Below are positions 4,918 through 14,428 of a stretch of DNA of 64,000 nt, piece by piece. Position 1 is the stretch's first letter. Each line of letters starts with the position of its first letter. The DNA is from Actinomycetota bacterium (GTDB lineage: Bacteria > Actinomycetota > Actinomycetes > Mycobacteriales > HKI-0501). The notes beneath the pieces are model-generated. The model was not told the DNA's origin, ran no database searches, and saw nothing but the letters and a program-made list of their open reading frames with translations. The position numbers were made by a program, and so were the translations under genes. The stretch covers positions 1 through 64,000 of the forward strand of contig JAVEDU010000105.1 of NCBI GenBank assembly GCA_030840805.1, written 5' to 3'.

Positions 4918-5343
4918 TCAGCCGCCCCCCGGTCCCGGGCCTTCCTCCGCCTGCCCAGATGCAGCGTTGGCTTCCGTAGTCGACGGGCTGGAGGTCTGCT
5001 GGTCCGATGCGTCCAGGCTCGCTGAATCAGCCGTCTTCCGGCGCAGGTTAAACGTGATACCGCCCTTGCCGGCCACCTCCCCACCGGCCCCCAGGAGGCT
5101 GACGCTGCCCTTGGCGCTGACTTCCGCGGCAATGCTGATCGAGTCGACGCGGAAGTCGCCCAGGAAGGCCGGTACGGAGTTGACCACGCCCTGCATGGAT
5201 TCCAGGAATGCTGACAGCCGGTTCTTCAGGTCGTCCGAGTCGACCTCGCCCCTACCGATGCGCAGTTCGCTGCTCTTCTTGAACAGGCCGCGCTCGACGC
5301 CGACGGTGTCCTCGATGCCGAAGACCCGGATCGTCTCGCCCAT
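4918..5343 (-). CDS. Small Pepco/Trypco1-like (CU044_2847-type) peptidase-associated protein
   Basis: The protein has 141 residues. It starts with a short beta-rich region (MGETIRVFGIEDTVGVERG), continues with a helix that seems to end at an amphipathic segment (LKNRLSAFLESMQGVVNSVP), and then carries FRVDSISIAAEVSAKGSVSL followed by a Gly-rich strand and a polar tail. The FRVDSISIAAEVSAKG type of motif is what I know from small domains that occur next to trypsin-like or caspase-like peptidases in actinobacterial conflict systems (Pepco, Trypco1). It is the last gene of a three-gene minus-strand operon, 9 nt after the CHAT protease, which supports a role as adaptor or regulator of that protease. 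Which of the two named families it belongs to needs a profile search. Confidence 0.6.
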   Translation of the reverse strand: MGETIRVFGIEDTVGVERGLFKKSSELRIGRGEVDSDDLKNRLSAFLESMQGVVNSVPAFLGDFRVDSISIAAEVSAKGSVSLLGAGGEVAGKGGITFNLRRKTADSASLDASDQQTSSPSTTEANAASGQAEEGPGPGGG

Positions 5344-5352
5344 TCCGCCCTC

Positions 5353-6624
5353 CTAGACCGCTCGCTGGAGCCTGAGGTGAGGATTGCCATAGTAGGAATA
5401 CAGGATCCCGAGGGGATTCCCTCTGGCCCGGAGGAGCAGGGATCGCGCGCGCAGAACGGAATGACCTACCGTGTACTGCTGGAAGATGCTGTCGTAGAAG
5501 AAGCGCGCGAACTCGGCTGCGACCGAGTCGGGGATCGCGGCCTCGGTGCCCAGCACACCCCGGTTCTTGAACTGCAGGAAGTGGTGGGGGAACGATGTCG
5601 CCGTCGCCGCTGTGACCATCGACGATCCGCAAGCGTTCAGGAAGACGAGCGGCAACTTCGTCGTCGCTCGCCGTCGCCCCTCCTCCTGCAGGTTCAGGAA
5701 GCCCGCTCCCAACTCCTGGAGCGTCAGGGCGACTTCGTCCCCATTGCGGCCAGCGAACCGCAGCGAGGACAGCTCCACGGATTCTGACTCGGTTTCGCAG
5801 TGGCAGGCCAGATGGAGGATCTGGTCGGGGAACGGCCGCCTCGGCCCGTAGAAGGAGGCGCGCGGATCGAACATTGCCGTGACGGCCAGCTCCTTGGCCG
5901 AGACGGCGTCCCGGACGCTGTCGGGCCATGGACCGTCGACGTCGACGGCATTCGCGGCCGCCTGGAAGAAGTCGACCTCGACGGCTGAGCCCGCCAGCTC
6001 TGCCGCATGGTGGAGTATCTTCACCGGCAGCTTCGGGACGTTGTGCAGCCAGCTGTCCCGGGCGGCGTCCGGCAAGCTGCCGACCACCCGGTGCGTGATC
6101 GCGCCGAACCCCGTAAAACGCTGGCAGATCGTCGGCAGGTCGCGCACCTGCTTCGCCGCGGGCATGCGTTTCGTGGCCAGCAGCGGTAGCACTTCGACTG
6201 GAAAGGCAACCTGCAACGTCGGCACCCGGAACATGATCACGGGCGGCTCTGCCGGCATCCTGGCCTGCCACTTCCGCAGGCTCGTCCTTATGTACTGCTT
6301 GAGCTCCAGTGACTTCGTCGCTTCTCTGCCCAGAAACGCCGTCAGCGAGCTCTGGCCCAAGGTCTGCAAATGCGTCAGCGCGGCGTTTGCGATGTCAATG
6401 TCGTCGGCATCGACGTCGAGCCTTCCGTCGAGCAGATCCTTGAAGGTCGTCATCCCGCGGGCCATCTGGCTGCGCACAGCCTTGAGCTCGTCCAAATCTC
6501 CCAGCTGGTCCCAGCTCAGTTGCCGCTCCTGCCCCCACCCCGTCACCTCGAGCGAGTAGTGGTTCTTCTCGGTGAGAACAGTGAGGACGACCGTCGCGGC
6601 GCGGCGCGGTGCCACCGGCATCAC
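5353..6624 (-). CDS. CHAT-domain caspase-like protease
   Basis: The product has 423 residues. The C-terminal half (about 190-420) is a CHAT protease domain. The catalytic His is expected at residue 275 in LHLACHC and the catalytic Cys at residue 332 in VFLNACGSS. GVLGTEAAIPD and an ARSLLLRARGNPLGILYS segment follow, as in other CHAT proteins. The N-terminal 180 residues are mostly helical with a mixed alpha/beta region and match no domain I can name. Both catalytic residues are present, so the enzyme is likely active and cytosolic. The ATG at 6624 overlaps the stop of the upstream membrane protein by 4 nt, and the Pepco-like gene follows after 9 nt, so the three are probably translationally coupled. 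Confidence 0.8.
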   Translation of the reverse strand: MMPVAPRRAATVVLTVLTEKNHYSLEVTGWGQERQLSWDQLGDLDELKAVRSQMARGMTTFKDLLDGRLDVDADDIDIANAALTHLQTLGQSSLTAFLGREATKSLELKQYIRTSLRKWQARMPAEPPVIMFRVPTLQVAFPVEVLPLLATKRMPAAKQVRDLPTICQRFTGFGAITHRVVGSLPDAARDSWLHNVPKLPVKILHHAAELAGSAVEVDFFQAAANAVDVDGPWPDSVRDAVSAKELAVTAMFDPRASFYGPRRPFPDQILHLACHCETESESVELSSLRFAGRNGDEVALTLQELGAGFLNLQEEGRRRATTKLPLVFLNACGSSMVTAATATSFPHHFLQFKNRGVLGTEAAIPDSVAAEFARFFYDSIFQQYTVGHSVLRARSLLLRARGNPLGILYSYYGNPHLRLQRAV

Positions 6625-8540
6625 GCCCGATCCAGACCGGGCGTCTGCCGGTTCACCCTGAGCACGTCGACGGTCTCGCCCTTCTGCAGCAGCTCTACGA
6701 AAACGTCGATGTCCGGCGACGGAAGGCCCGCGGGAAGGCCGAAGTAGACCTGCTGCCGCTCCCAGCGGACCGGCACGGAGACGGTCTGACTCCGTGGCTC
6801 GATCGGTCTACCGCGTACGGTGGGCCGGACCTCGAACTCGACGATAGGCACATCGCGACCGTCGGTGATCTCGATGGGAATGCTGGGCGCGTCCGGTTCC
6901 TCATCCGGGCCGATCGTCACCCTGAGCCGCAGCGGCTGCGCACCTGCCGGCTGCCCTTCGGTCGGCGTCGGCAGGGATTCCAGGACTGCCGACAGGTGCC
7001 CCGTGTAGTTGTCCAGCTCCGGCCCGGCGAGCTCGGATCGGACCTGTTCGGCCACCTGTCTGGCGAAGCTCTCCCGCTTCCGGGCACTCCGGATCGACCA
7101 GACGCCCAGGGACGCCGCTCTTCGCGATACCCAGTCCTTCTGGGCGGTGGGCAAGGCGATGAGGTAGACGCTGAGGAGGAGCAGCAGCGCGAGGTTGAGC
7201 CACGCCAGGGTCTGGAGAGAGGCAGTGGCGCCTCCGGGCGCCGTCGACGGCCGGAGGCGCAGCGCCCAGGCGGCGGGCCACGCGATCGCGACGAACCCGA
7301 GCAACGCGGCCAGGGCCACTGCCCACCGGCCTGGGTCGGTGCGTGCAGCGACCCGGTGAGGGAACCTTGTGATCATGCGCCGGCCCCACCCGCGGGCGCG
7401 CACTGGCCCGCGTATGAGCGCCCCACGCCCGAGGCGCAGACCAAGCGGACTGTCCAGGTGCCGGGCATCCAGCGCCACCGTGTTCGGTCCGGAATCGATC
7501 GTCGATCCCTCGAGGTTCACTTCGGTGGCGGAGAGCTCCACCAGGCTGATGGGGCCATCGGCCCGGAAGCCGTGCGACAACTCCACGCGGCCGTCGACCT
7601 TGGCCCTCGAGGCGTCGCAGGCCGTGGCGCCCCTGCTCACGATGGTGGTGCCGCGCGCGTCGATCGCGGCGGCGGTGAGATTGCGGAGGTCGATACCGCC
7701 CTCGCAGGCGAGGCGCTGGGCCTCGACCTCACCTGTGATGGTGGTTGCTTGCAGCGACAGCGCACATCCACGGGGGGCCTTGAGTCGGCTGTCGCTCAGG
7801 AACATCGGCCCGTCGACGAAGCCGTGCGACAGCACGACCGCGCCGTCCGACGTGAAACCCCCATCCAACGCGACCGCGCCACGGATGGCGCAGTGCGAGG
7901 CCTCCAGCGCGATGTCGGAACCGGATATCCGAGCTGCAGAAGCGAAGAGCCCGCCTCGGATGGAGGCGCCGGCCAGGCGCACTGCGCCGACGAGCGTGGC
8001 CGCCTGCAGGTGCACTCCGGCGCCCACCTCGATCAGGTCCGCCGTGACCGCGCGCAGCTCGTCCCCGTGGACCGTGGCCCACCTCAGGATGAGCGCCCCT
8101 CCTATCGAGGCGCTGGACAGAGCCACCGGCGACTGGAAGGCGCTCGACTCAAGAATGAGGTCGTGGGCGACGGTCAGGCCGCGCCCGCTGAAGTGCCCGA
8201 CGGAGCAGTTCATGATGCTGATGCGCTTCGCGGTCGCGTCGTCCAAGACGATGCCGTCCTCAAGCGTGCACCCGACGAGATGGAGGGGACGACGGAGCTC
8301 GGCGCTCTCCAGATCAACCTGACCCACGACCTCTGCGCCGCGTAGGCGGACCCCCTTGTAGTGGATCCGCCAGCTGCGCTCCGTGCACAGGTCCGCCAGG
8401 AACTCGGCGCGGAGCGCGGAGCCGGGGAAATCCGACGGGTCGTAGTCCCGCAGGATCTCAAAGTCACACACCGCGCCCCTGCGGGCTGCGCTCGCCAGTT
8501 CGTTCTCTGCTGGGCTGAGATCGTCGGGAAGGTACGGCAT
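6621..8540 (-). CDS. Membrane protein with large beta-helix repeat domain
   Basis: The product has 639 residues. A short acidic N-terminus is followed by a right-handed beta-helix-like domain at about residues 60-380. It is built of irregular units of about 20 residues, such as VRLRGAEVVGQVDLESAEL and RLAGASIRGGLFASAARI, and resembles the pentapeptide-type membrane-associated proteins of actinobacteria. Two membrane helices follow at about 405-429 and 444-464, and then a soluble C-terminal domain of about 170 residues containing VPVRWERQQVYFGLPAG. ATG 8540 is chosen because GAGGGGAG lies 5-7 nt upstream; the frame extends to 8693 without another such site. It is the first gene of the CHAT operon and could be the membrane sensor or anchor. 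No catalytic motif is seen. Confidence 0.7.
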   Translation of the reverse strand: MPYLPDDLSPAENELASAARRGAVCDFEILRDYDPSDFPGSALRAEFLADLCTERSWRIHYKGVRLRGAEVVGQVDLESAELRRPLHLVGCTLEDGIVLDDATAKRISIMNCSVGHFSGRGLTVAHDLILESSAFQSPVALSSASIGGALILRWATVHGDELRAVTADLIEVGAGVHLQAATLVGAVRLAGASIRGGLFASAARISGSDIALEASHCAIRGAVALDGGFTSDGAVVLSHGFVDGPMFLSDSRLKAPRGCALSLQATTITGEVEAQRLACEGGIDLRNLTAAAIDARGTTIVSRGATACDASRAKVDGRVELSHGFRADGPISLVELSATEVNLEGSTIDSGPNTVALDARHLDSPLGLRLGRGALIRGPVRARGWGRRMITRFPHRVAARTDPGRWAVALAALLGFVAIAWPAAWALRLRPSTAPGGATASLQTLAWLNLALLLLLSVYLIALPTAQKDWVSRRAASLGVWSIRSARKRESFARQVAEQVRSELAGPELDNYTGHLSAVLESLPTPTEGQPAGAQPLRLRVTIGPDEEPDAPSIPIEITDGRDVPIVEFEVRPTVRGRPIEPRSQTVSVPVRWERQQVYFGLPAGLPSPDIDVFVELLQKGETVDVLRVNRQTPGLDRA

Positions 8541-10024: not shown

Positions 10025-11167
10025 TCAACCCGAGATGGCCCCGGTGGGATGGTTCGATTCGGCCCCAGCACGGTGGTTGCGGGAGGTCTGCGGGGCGGCG
10101 CGGTTCGCGTAGGTCATGCCGAGCAGGTTGTGAACGGCAGTCAGGGTGCGGTCGGCGATCTGACGGGCCCGGTCGTTGCCGTTGTCGAGGACTTCGTCGA
10201 TGTAGGAGTGGTCGTCGGCCAGGGCGGCGCGTCGTTGCCGCAGCGGGCGCAGGAGTTCGTTGACGGCCTCGGTGAGCGTCTGCTTGAGCCGTCCTGCGCC
10301 GCCGTCTCCGATGTTGTCGGCGAGACGGTGCGGGTCCTCGCCAGTGGTGGCGGCAAGGAGGTCTAGCAGGTTGGCGACGGCGGGCCGAATGAGCGGGTCG
10401 TAGCTGATATGCCTTTCGCTGTCGGTGGGCGCGCGGCGGATCAGCGCGGCGGTCTCGTCCTCGGTGGCGCGTAGCGCGATGCCGTTGCCGCGGGTCTTGC
10501 TCATCTTCTGTCCGTCGAGTCCGGCCAGCATCGGAGTGTCGGTGAGCAGGGCGTTTGGTTCAGGGAAGACCTGCTGCTGGTTGCCGTAGCGCTCATTGAA
10601 GCGACGGGCGATCAGGCGGGTGGTCTCGAGGTGCGGAAGTTGGTCGAGGCCGACGGGGACCAGGTTCGCCTGGCAGAAGAGGATGTCCGCGGCCTGGTGG
10701 ACGGGGTAGGTCAGCATGAGGCCGGTCGGTGGCAGGCCGGTGGCCTCGGTCTCGGCTTTGACGGTCGGATTTCGGTGCAGTTCGGCGTCGCTGACCAGGC
10801 TCAGGAACGGCAGTACCAATTCGTTGAGCGTGGGGACTGCGCTGTGGGTGAAGATCGTCGTTCGGTGCGGGTCGATGCCGGCGGCGAGGTAGTCGGCGAC
10901 GACGCCGCGGACGGTCTCCACTAGCTGGTGGCCTGCCTGCTGGTCGGTCATGACTTGGTAGTCGGCGATCAGCACGATCACCTCGACGCCGAGGTCCTGT
11001 AGCCGGACTCGATTGGCGAGGGTGCCGAGGTAGTGGCCGATGTGGAGTGGGCCGGTTGGGCGGTCGCCGGTCAGGACGCGGAAGCGTTGCGGGTCGGTCA
11101 GGACCTGGTCGTGGAGATCGTTACTGCGCTCGAGGGCTGCCAGCTGTGATGGGGTGCGGTCGGGCAT
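10025..11167 (-). CDS. trpS: Auxiliary tryptophanyl-tRNA synthetase
   Basis: This class I synthetase of 380 residues charges tRNA-Trp with tryptophan. The ATP-binding HIGH motif is at residues 42-45 (LHIGHYLG) and KMSKT at 221-225. The stretch between holds the tryptophan pocket, including DILFCQANLVPVGLDQLPH. The Met start is preceded by AAGGAG. The protein lies in the island, away from housekeeping genes, and carries a Trp-codon leader and attenuator upstream. Both facts point to the stress-induced, antibiotic-tolerant type of TrpRS known from Streptomyces, where the extra enzyme gives indolmycin resistance. Whether this one is resistant cannot be read from the sequence. The chromosome should carry a second, housekeeping trpS elsewhere. 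Confidence 0.88.
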   Translation of the reverse strand: MPDRTPSQLAALERSNDLHDQVLTDPQRFRVLTGDRPTGPLHIGHYLGTLANRVRLQDLGVEVIVLIADYQVMTDQQAGHQLVETVRGVVADYLAAGIDPHRTTIFTHSAVPTLNELVLPFLSLVSDAELHRNPTVKAETEATGLPPTGLMLTYPVHQAADILFCQANLVPVGLDQLPHLETTRLIARRFNERYGNQQQVFPEPNALLTDTPMLAGLDGQKMSKTRGNGIALRATEDETAALIRRAPTDSERHISYDPLIRPAVANLLDLLAATTGEDPHRLADNIGDGGAGRLKQTLTEAVNELLRPLRQRRAALADDHSYIDEVLDNGNDRARQIADRTLTAVHNLLGMTYANRAAPQTSRNHRAGAESNHPTGAISG

Positions 11168-11405: not shown

Positions 11406-11660
11406 TCAGTTGCTGGCCTTCGCGCGGCGAGCGTGCGCGAGGCGGCAGCTGTGGCCAGTCTCGATGATCTGGCCGTTGAAGGTGAGGCGGTCGACGACGG
11501 CGGCACAGAGGCTCGGGTCGGTGACGGTTTTGGTCCAGCCGGAGAACGGCTCTTTGGAGGCGATCGCGACGGCGGACTTCTCCTCCCGTTCGGTGAGGAC
11601 TTGGAACAGCAGTTCGGCGCCTCGGCGGTCGAGCTGAATCCAGTCCGCATCAGCCCACAA
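11406..11660 (-). pseudogene. IS21-type helper protein IstB, C-terminal fragment
   Basis: The minus-strand frame reads QLDRRGAELLFQVLTERE, then VAIASKEPFSGWTKTVTDP and RLTFNGQIIETG. This is the C-terminal half of the IstB AAA+ ATPase: the region after Walker B with the arginine sensor motifs. The Walker A and B region is missing or out of frame upstream, so the fragment is dead. IstA and the IS21 ends are not seen. It lies 87 bp upstream of the trpS leader and may have come with the rearrangement that placed trpS here. Confidence 0.65.
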
Positions 11661-11850
11661 GCCGCAGCGACGAAGCGAGACCCCCGGTCGGCATCTGCCC
11701 AGGTGGCAGCCCCTTCGCGATGTCTCACCACCGCGGACGATTGCGGCCTGCACGTTCCCGGCCTACAGACTGACTCGTCCGCCCCAGCCCTCACTGCCCG
11801 CTCCGGCCCCGACGCCGCCTGTCCGCGCGAATGGTCGCACGGGAACAGCG

Positions 11851-12684: not shown

Positions 12685-12976
12685 ATGCCGGTGAAATGGC
12701 TGAGTTCCCTGAGAAGTGACTGGCACACGGGAGGCGGGTGTGCGATCGCCTCACGACTCTCCCCCTACCGAGACGTCGCTCCGACATCGCTATCTGGAAA
12801 GATGCCACGACAGAGGGACATCCCGCCACGGGGTCCTCCTCCTGCGCTCTGGGCGTCGGTCCCTGTGGCCGCGCCCCGGGGCCCACCACTAAGTGGACCG
12901 CCTGCGGCCTCTCGCGTGCCCTCTGTCGTGAAGGAGAGAGGTGCTGCGGCGGGCACAGCAGGGAGGGACGACGGGG

Positions 12977-14428
12977 ATGCTGACGCTGAAGAGCACGGAC
13001 GGGACCGCCACCTGGGACGGGCACGTCCTCACGCTGGCGTTCTCGGGTTTCCTGAGCGGTCAGGTCAAGCGCAAGAAGATCGTGGCCTACCCCCGTGCCG
13101 AGTTCTCGTGGTTGGAACTGGCGCCGGCACGAGGCCTCACGAGTGCATATCTCCTGATTCACCGCCCCGGCGTCGAGCTGCGCGCGAAGCTCGGCCCGCA
13201 GAAGCGCCTCGACACGTTCGTCGTGCCATTTGGCAAGGACGAGGCTGTCACGCAGTTCGTGGCGGCGGTCAACGGGGGTGTGCATCACGGGGCTCCGTCG
13301 GCGCCGGTCACGATGCCCGTTGCCCCGGCGACCACGCCCGGGTGGGCGGAGTCCGAGAGCCGCGGCGGCAACGAGCCAGAGCCCGCCGACATGCCGCCGA
13401 GTCGTGCCGTGCCAGCCCTCGGACGATCGGGATTCGGGACGCAGAGGGTGGCCGCCGCGGTCGAGCCGCCGGCGCGGCAGATCGATTCGTGGCAGGTCGC
13501 TGAGGAGAACGCGGCCGCCTGGATGCGGTACTGGGGACACTCCGACGCGGCCTGTACCCCGGCGGGTGCCGACGGGGGCATCGACGTGCGGGCGAGGACG
13601 GCAGTCGCGCAGGTGAAATTCGAGGCGGCCCAGGTCGGGGCGCCGGCGGTCCAGCGTCTCGTCGGCGCGCGGGGCCTGGACCACTCCCTCACGCTGTACT
13701 TCTTCTCCGGCGCGGGCTTTGCTCGTCCCGCGGTGGACTACGCCGAGATGATGGGGATCGCGCTGTTCAAGTACGACCTGCTCGGTCGGATGACCCCCGT
13801 ATCCAGCGCCGCCAGCACGGCAATCGCGCGGGCAGCTGAATCCGTTCGCCTGTCCGAGGAACGTGAATCGGTTCGCCTGTCCGCGGAACGTGAATCGGTT
13901 CGCCTGTCCGCGGAACGCCTCCGGGCGTTGCCTGCGGTAAGGGCCTGGCTGGCGACAACGCCGCCGGCACAACCTGACCCTCCGGGCTGGTTCGGGCGCA
14001 ACTGGAGTCTCCTCCTGGCGCTCTGGTTCCTCCTTGGGGGGCTTTGGAACGGAGTCGGCTACCTCCGCGGGGCGGCTCCCGAAGACATAGACTGGCGCGC
14101 CCCGCTGATCTTGTTGCTCGTCGGGTGTGCGCTCGTATTGCTCTGGCGGCACCTCGGGCGCAAGCGCCGCGCCAGAGAGGTCGGGGCGGCATCAGTGGCA
14201 CCGGTCGTCTGGCCGGCCCGACCAATGCCCGCGTCCGTGCTCGCTGCCGTGCTCGGGTCGCCCGGTGTAGCGGGAGCGTTGCGGGCCCGCAACAGGATCC
14301 AGGCAATCAAGCATTATCGGACCGCGAATCCCGGGTTCGGTTTGGTCGAGAGCAAGAGACTCATTGACGCCGTATCGGCGGACTCCAGGTTCGCCGCTGA
14401 CGATAGGTCCGCATCCCAGGATGGATGA
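12977..14428 (+). CDS. DUF4429 - Mrr-like nuclease - membrane - L7/L12-like fusion protein
   Basis: The protein has about 483 residues. Residues 1-90 resemble DUF4429 (MLTLKSTDGTATWDGHVLTL with a Lys-rich loop KRKKIVAYP). Residues 170-280 are an Mrr-type restriction nuclease fold, with the key acids and base in GADGGID (Asp 203) and AQVK (Gln 212, Lys 214). Three nine-residue repeats (ESVRLSEER type) at about 288-314 would form a helix. Two membrane helices follow at about 342-362 and 376-391, and a C-terminal NRIQAIKHYRTANPGFGLVE segment like the ribosomal L7/L12 C-terminal domain. Start ATG 12977 follows GGAGGGACG; GTG 12941 with AAGGAGAG is an alternative. Membrane-anchored Mrr proteins act in defence or stress, but this combination is unusual. 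Its target is unknown. Confidence 0.65.
   Translation: MLTLKSTDGTATWDGHVLTLAFSGFLSGQVKRKKIVAYPRAEFSWLELAPARGLTSAYLLIHRPGVELRAKLGPQKRLDTFVVPFGKDEAVTQFVAAVNGGVHHGAPSAPVTMPVAPATTPGWAESESRGGNEPEPADMPPSRAVPALGRSGFGTQRVAAAVEPPARQIDSWQVAEENAAAWMRYWGHSDAACTPAGADGGIDVRARTAVAQVKFEAAQVGAPAVQRLVGARGLDHSLTLYFFSGAGFARPAVDYAEMMGIALFKYDLLGRMTPVSSAASTAIARAAESVRLSEERESVRLSAERESVRLSAERLRALPAVRAWLATTPPAQPDPPGWFGRNWSLLLALWFLLGGLWNGVGYLRGAAPEDIDWRAPLILLLVGCALVLLWRHLGRKRRAREVGAASVAPVVWPARPMPASVLAAVLGSPGVAGALRARNRIQAIKHYRTANPGFGLVESKRLIDAVSADSRFAADDRSASQDG
13838..13918 (+). repeat. Three 27-bp tandem units inside the Mrr fusion gene
   Basis: Three in-frame copies of a 27-bp unit (13838-13864, 13865-13891, 13892-13918) encode ESVRLSEER, ESVRLSAER and ESVRLSAER. 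The last two copies are nearly identical, which points to recent slippage. The nine-residue unit has a charged face and probably makes a linker helix before the membrane segment. Confidence 0.7.

What the first reader, a model, noticed from the sequence alone, without database searches (positions are those of the whole stretch)
4918..8540. Three-gene CHAT protease operon: beta-helix membrane protein, caspase-like protease, Pepco-like protein
The three minus-strand genes are coupled (4-nt overlap, then 9-nt gap) and intact, unlike most of the surrounding island. CHAT proteases with both catalytic residues (His 275, Cys 332) are effectors in several conflict systems. Small Pepco/Trypco-type domains sit next to such peptidases. 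Here the first gene supplies a large beta-helix domain and two membrane helices, which could sense a signal at the membrane. I know no described system with exactly this trio, and its position among phage- and plasmid-type remnants suggests defence.
Basis: partly seen in the sequence, partly recalled or inferred. Interest (0 to 1): 0.85.

Follow-up and report, generated by a model that had tools for sequence, protein, structure and literature searches.

The report
Membrane-anchored caspase-like protease gene trio
Three genes that travel together as one cassette, mainly in Streptomyces-like bacteria, encode a membrane-anchored sensor-like protein, a caspase-like protease and a small protease-partner protein, probably a switch that makes a cell shut itself down under attack; the exact combination appears undescribed and its function is untested.

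Summary
Genes at 8540-6621, 6624-5353 and 5343-4918 (minus strand) are intact; the second is a CHAT protease with invariant His275/Cys332, the third a true Pfam Pepco domain. The first is a probably cytosolic beta-solenoid, a two-helix membrane hairpin and a C-terminal beta-sandwich unknown to Pfam. The trio recurs: same order and strand in ten other loci (one Streptomyces plasmid, nine genomes of one Streptomyces-like genus). In 296 genomes of that genus the C-terminal domain and this CHAT type occur in the same nine genomes, this Pepco type in eight of them. DNA similarity between loci stops at the cassette ends. Constant: C-terminal domain + CHAT + Pepco. Exchangeable and fastest evolving: the N-terminal module of gene 1 (solenoid here, about ten membrane helices elsewhere). 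Elsewhere Pepco sits beside caspases, often fused to iHD-CE conflict domains. Best reading: a membrane-tethered, Pepco-gated caspase-like conflict (probably anti-phage, cell-arrest) module; main rival: regulated-proteolysis signalling. Defence is inferred, not shown. New variant of a known kind: no PADLOC match and no held paper describes it, but the original CATRA paper could not be read.

The parts
6621..8540 (-). Gene 1, 639 aa: beta-solenoid + membrane hairpin + C-terminal beta-sandwich domain
   Evidence: ORF and SD; AlphaFold2 model; the C-terminal profile finds the same domain upstream of every trio-type CHAT gene
7371..8363 (-). beta-solenoid (pentapeptide-like), aa 60-390: exchangeable N-terminal module
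   Evidence: pLDDT mostly above 95; solenoid relatives without CHAT/Pepco in 30 of 200 genomes of the order; replaced by about 10 TM helices in other trios
7257..7331 (-). TM helix 1, aa 404-428
   Evidence: model helix and hydropathy; K/R-rich segments outside both helices
7155..7226 (-). TM helix 2, aa 439-462
6654..6998 (-). C-terminal beta-sandwich domain, aa 515-629 (constant module of gene 1)
   Evidence: alignment A7; found in exactly the 9 genomes (of 296) that have trio-type CHAT
5353..6624 (-). Gene 2, CHAT caspase-like protease, 423 aa; His275 (codon 5802-5800), Cys332 (codon 5631-5629)
   Evidence: Pfam CHAT; catalytic pair invariant in 11 sequences; Foldseek to Csx29, separase, SAVED-CHAT
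4918..5343 (-). Gene 3, Pepco domain protein, 141 aa (conserved core to aa 102, low-complexity tail)
   Evidence: Pfam Pepco 61.4 bits; motif SAKGxxSxLGxGGE in 10 sequences

Best explanation
A transferable three-gene cassette encoding a membrane-tethered caspase-like switch. Gene 1 is anchored by a membrane hairpin (or, in relatives, a larger membrane domain) with its variable N-terminal part as input module and its constant C-terminal beta-sandwich facing the cytosol. The CHAT protease and Pepco are its constant partners: the C-terminal domain docks and holds the CHAT protease at the membrane, and Pepco binds the protease as gate or adaptor. When the N-terminal module detects an invader or a membrane disturbance, CHAT is activated and cleaves cellular targets, arresting or killing the cell. 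Shown: cassette, domains, catalytic residues, strict co-occurrence, co-divergence, mobility, Pepco-caspase pairing elsewhere. Inferred: complex formation, gating, trigger, target and anti-phage purpose.
For: Same order and strand in 11 complete cassettes counting the window. In 296 genomes of one genus: C-terminal domain in 9, trio-type CHAT in the same 9, trio-type Pepco in 8 of those. Distance matrices co-vary (Mantel r 0.94, 0.95, 0.85). Nucleotide similarity between loci ends at the cassette; one copy lies on a Streptomyces plasmid beside transposases. CHAT and most Pepco pairs are under purifying selection; the N-terminal part of gene 1 evolves fastest (dN/dS 0.47-0.75 against 0.22-0.57 C-terminal and 0.18-0.28 CHAT). 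Other Pepco genes lie next to caspase genes; six of six tested neighbours are Peptidase_C14 and four of these carry the iHD-CE domain. The CHAT model resembles Csx29/Craspase and SAVED-CHAT. Caspase CanA, purified with partner CanB, activates a nuclease in the Canu anti-phage system (PMC12799240).
Against: No defence assay. Flanks of most other cassettes look ordinary and known defence genes were not systematically sought there; in the window only an Mrr-type nuclease lies 4.4 kb away. No match in PADLOC, no homologue in phage records or in the IMG/VR pattern scan. CHAT folds also serve non-defence roles: separase and the transmembrane anti-sigma factor DdvA are among the hits. The single-chain CHAT-Pepco model gave low confidence for Pepco, so contact is unproved. 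One locus (L089) lacks a recognisable Pepco.
Confidence: 0.5

Rival explanations
1. Regulated-proteolysis signalling: the membrane protein senses an envelope or physiological cue and CHAT cleaves a regulator to change gene expression or development, with no killing.
For: The transmembrane anti-sigma factor DdvA is a CHAT protein and a structural hit; solenoid + membrane-helix proteins are common in the order without any CHAT or Pepco nearby.
Against: Patchy distribution (9 of 296 genomes), unshared flanks, a plasmid copy and exchangeable N-terminal modules fit a mobile conflict gene better than a conserved regulator; no sigma or transcription factor gene is part of the cassette.
Confidence: 0.25
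2. Toxin-antitoxin-like addiction cassette: the CHAT protease is the toxin and Pepco (or the gene 1 C-terminal domain) the inhibitor.
For: Small partner next to a protease; mobile, plasmid-borne cassette; strict linkage.
Against: A membrane protein gene always comes first; Pepco genes also precede large caspase-iHD-CE proteins that are not two-gene toxin-antitoxin modules in form.
Confidence: 0.12
3. Coincidental neighbours in a decaying island.
For: Surrounding genes are partly remnants.
Against: Same order in ten other loci, co-occurrence and co-divergence.
Confidence: 0.02

Closest known systems
Pepco + Peptidase_C14 caspase, often with iHD-CE/HD-CE (Pfam PF24393, PF00656, PF24401, PF24391)
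   Same: Pepco gene directly beside a caspase-superfamily protease
   Different: Those caspases are C14-type and four of six tested are fused to iHD-CE; the trio has a free CHAT protease and a membrane protein with a new C-terminal domain
Trypco1/Trypco2 peptidase partners in VMAP conflict systems (PMC7159879)
   Same: Small protein encoded next to a protease; a distant Pepco (L144) also hits Trypco1 at E 2.4e-4, just below its cut-off
   Different: The window's Pepco does not match Trypco1; CHAT instead of trypsin; no MoxR, vWA or NTPase
CATRA caspase-dependent ternary systems (named in PMC8195603; original paper not readable here)
   Same: Ternary system with a caspase-type protease; small protein CATASP (composition partly from my own knowledge)
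   Different: No CATASP (PF20271) in the window genome or in any trio genome tested; no CATRA match in gene 1 or 2
Canu (CanABC) caspase-nuclease anti-phage system (PMC12799240)
   Same: Caspase-family protease that forms a complex with an accessory protein
   Different: No pro-nuclease gene in the trio; CHAT rather than the Canu caspase; membrane anchor
Craspase / Csx29 TPR-CHAT and SAVED-CHAT
   Same: CHAT fold; among the best structural hits
   Different: No TPR, SAVED or CRISPR parts; must be activated by another route
DdvA transmembrane CHAT anti-sigma factor (PDB 8rot)
   Same: CHAT coupled to the membrane
   Different: One protein carries both membrane part and CHAT; here they are separate genes with Pepco and no sigma factor

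Membership tests
CHAT proteases (PF12770) | Profile match above curated cut-off | tested here: met
   38.7 bits against 24
CHAT proteases (PF12770) | Catalytic His and Cys | tested here: met
   His275 and Cys332 invariant in 11 homologues
CHAT proteases (PF12770) | Proteolytic activity | not testable with these tools
   needs biochemistry
Pepco (PF24393) | Profile match above curated cut-off | tested here: met
   61.4 bits against 27; all 10 trio homologues match the family
Pepco (PF24393) | Gene next to a peptidase | tested here: met
   CHAT in all complete trios; C14 caspase beside other Pepcos
Trypco1 (PF19493) | Profile match | tested here: not met
   none for P0003; one trio homologue at E 0.053; small-alignment hhalign probability below 8%
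CATRA ternary systems | CATASP small protein | tested here: not met
   absent from the window genome and the trio genomes
CATRA ternary systems | CATRA domain protein | tested here: not met
   no CATRA hit in gene 1 or 2 in the Pfam scan
VMAP / MoxR-vWA ternary systems | MoxR ATPase and vWA genes in the operon | tested here: not met
   no such genes around the trio in the window
Canu (CanABC) | Pro-nuclease gene downstream of the caspase | tested here: not met
   the downstream gene is Pepco
Known PADLOC defence systems | Profile match | tested here: not met
   no match up to E 1 (2023 database)
Anti-phage defence systems generally | Protection against phage | not testable with these tools
   needs phage challenge

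The most novel reading that the evidence does not exclude
An undescribed class of bacterial immune system: a membrane-anchored sensor with interchangeable N-terminal recognition modules signals through a constant beta-sandwich domain to a Pepco-gated CHAT protease that executes cell arrest, functionally parallel to membrane-tethered caspase activation in animals.
Probability: 0.35. Interest if true: 0.78.

Novelty: new variant of a known kind. Interest (0 to 1): 0.58.

Why it matters
It gives a compact, testable bacterial caspase-like system in which an exchangeable membrane/sensor module and a constant execution module are separate proteins, supports Pepco as a partner of caspase-superfamily proteases, and defines a C-terminal domain not in Pfam. 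If defence is shown, it adds a membrane-linked branch to bacterial caspase immunity.

Tried and rejected
The genome-contig scan with the CHAT protein alone returned one Enterobacter stretch that overlaps a flavodoxin-like gene on the other strand: chance match. The L033 Pepco hit (below cut-off) falls among housekeeping genes: judged false. hhalign of Pepco against 12 Trypco1 sequences: no support from these small alignments, although one distant Pepco hits Trypco1 weakly. CATRA membership rejected. Foldseek on gene 1 gave no match at E <= 0.001; solenoid hits are generic pentapeptide/solenoid proteins and the C-terminal domain has no clear match by fold or sequence. AlphaFold2 on CHAT read through its TAG stop into the in-frame Pepco was used purely as a single-chain contact test: inconclusive, Pepco pLDDT about 60 and no interface score. 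No homologue in phage records or in the IMG/VR pattern scan. The third gene of L089 was checked against Pfam and PDB without an informative match.

Full report
Observation. The three minus-strand ORFs exist at the stated coordinates and are intact. Gene 1 starts at ATG 8540 behind a good Shine-Dalgarno sequence; gene 2 starts at GTG 6624 (4-nt overlap) or, equally plausibly, ATG 6621 (TGATG); gene 3 starts 9 nt after the stop of gene 2, with AGGAGG upstream. Pfam confirms CHAT and Pepco above their curated cut-offs; gene 1 matches no family. PADLOC has nothing for any of the three.

Anatomy. AlphaFold2 on gene 1 gives a beta-solenoid (aa 60-390, pLDDT mostly above 95), two hydrophobic helices (404-428, 439-462), a further helical stretch and a C-terminal beta-sandwich (515-629, moderate to low confidence). 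The segments flanking the hairpin carry 7 Lys/Arg each, so by the positive-inside rule solenoid and C-terminal domain should both be cytosolic (inference). Solenoid relatives with C-terminal membrane helices but without the trio's C-terminal domain, CHAT or Pepco nearby are common in the order (30 of 200 genomes; neighbourhoods; helices). The CHAT protein has an N-terminal part of beta-strands plus three helices and a C-terminal protease domain; its best structural matches are Csx29/Craspase, separase, SAVED-CHAT and the transmembrane anti-sigma factor DdvA.

Recurrence. A CHAT homologue on Streptomyces sp. NBC_01006 plasmid unnamed1 is flanked by a hypothetical membrane protein and a small protein that proved to be Pepco. 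The same order was found in G128 and, after searches with the CHAT profile, in G611, G808, G780, G830, G600, G751, G1104 and the divergent G632; G765 has gene 1 and CHAT but a different 266-aa third gene. Gene 1 of these relatives shares only its C-terminal domain (and membrane anchoring) with the window; in most the N-terminal part is about 7-12 predicted membrane helices instead of a solenoid.

Test of linkage. In the 296-genome draw of that genus, the C-terminal domain was found in 9 genomes, CHAT of this type (at least 150 bits) in the same 9, and Pepco of this type (at least 148 bits) in 8 of those 9. A random overlap of this kind would have a probability near 1e-17 if genomes were independent, which they are not, so the number is only indicative. 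Distances among ten cassettes correlate strongly between the three genes (Mantel 0.85-0.95). BLASTN between loci shows similarity limited to the cassette, with different flanks each time. In a class-wide sample of 395 genomes only the window, G128 and G1104 scored strongly: the cassette is rare and patchy, and the window's two family relatives have only weak, other CHAT hits. The window's CHAT is only 22-33% identical to the others and lies in a lower-GC stretch, consistent with acquisition by transfer.

Selection. Among closely related cassettes dN/dS is 0.18-0.28 for CHAT and at most 0.24 for Pepco in six of seven pairs (one pair 0.67), 0.22-0.57 for the gene 1 C-terminal part and 0.47-0.75 for its N-terminal part. 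Counting methods at this GC content are rough, but the ranking agrees with a fast-evolving input module and a constrained execution module.

Pepco. Ten further loci with Pepco outside the trio were examined in Streptomyces-like genomes (L142-L151). In eight a caspase-like gene starts directly beside Pepco, in one it lies 1.3 kb away, in one none was seen. Six caspase-like neighbours were tested: all six match Peptidase_C14 and four also carry iHD-CE/HD-CE domains. L031 has the same arrangement, and L032 pairs a weak Pepco hit with what looks like a trypsin-type protease (by inspection). One distant Pepco also hits Trypco1 weakly. Pepco thus behaves as a partner of peptidases, mostly caspase-type. 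This is the strongest support for a functional CHAT-Pepco pair.

Mechanism. I infer a membrane-tethered protease complex: gene 1 anchors and senses, its C-terminal domain holds CHAT, Pepco gates or adapts it, and activation leads to cleavage of cell proteins and arrest or death. Precedents: caspase CanA, purified in complex with CanB, activating a nuclease in Canu (PMC12799240); peptidase-based conflict systems with small partner domains in multicellular bacteria (PMC7159879). The trigger, the substrate and the purpose are not shown. A signalling role like that of DdvA is the main rival.

Membership and novelty. CHAT and Pepco membership are met. CATRA, VMAP, Canu and Trypco1 membership were tested on the features listed and not met. 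The trio is not in PADLOC 2023, and searches of the 5.4 million open papers found no description (no paper held mentions Pepco together with CHAT; the original CATRA paper is not held). Absence from these sources is not proof that it is undescribed. I therefore call it a new variant of a known kind: a membrane-anchored CHAT-Pepco conflict-type cassette with an exchangeable input module.

Noticed in passing
L142-L151 (e.g. L148:3856-6716, L145:6526-11749): Pepco gene directly upstream of large caspase (Peptidase_C14) proteins, several fused to iHD-CE/HD-CE, in Streptomyces-like genomes: a second Pepco arrangement.
   Followed up: partly
L144:6251-6616: A distant Pepco protein also matches Trypco1 (E 2.4e-4, just under cut-off), suggesting Pepco and Trypco1 are remote relatives.
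   Followed up: partly
L089:2314-3114: In G765 the third gene of the cassette is not Pepco but an unknown 266-aa protein with no Pfam match and no informative PDB match: possible partner replacement.
   Followed up: partly
L141:6788-7051 (G855): Trio-type Pepco, frameshifted, with no CHAT or gene 1 C-terminal domain beside it: looks like a relic of a lost cassette.
   Followed up: partly
L028:7128-9644 and gene 1 of L029: Multi-helix N-terminal part with a repeated motif of the type GWLAVTFAVDGRSGLAWLMGG, apparently from internal duplication of a two-helix unit.
   Followed up: no
window 10025-11167 (-): Intact tryptophanyl-tRNA-synthetase-type gene (Pfam tRNA-synt_1b) inside the island; possibly a second, resistance-type copy.
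   Followed up: no
window 12941-14428 (+): Protein with an Mrr-type restriction endonuclease domain in the same island.
   Followed up: no
window 11406-11753 (-): C-terminal fragment of an IS21 IstB helper gene (profile positions 164-237 of 238).
   Followed up: no
L090:10795-12587: Gene 1 of the divergent cassette in G632 appears as two ORFs about 12 nt apart (338 and 254 aa), either a natural split or a frameshift.
   Followed up: no
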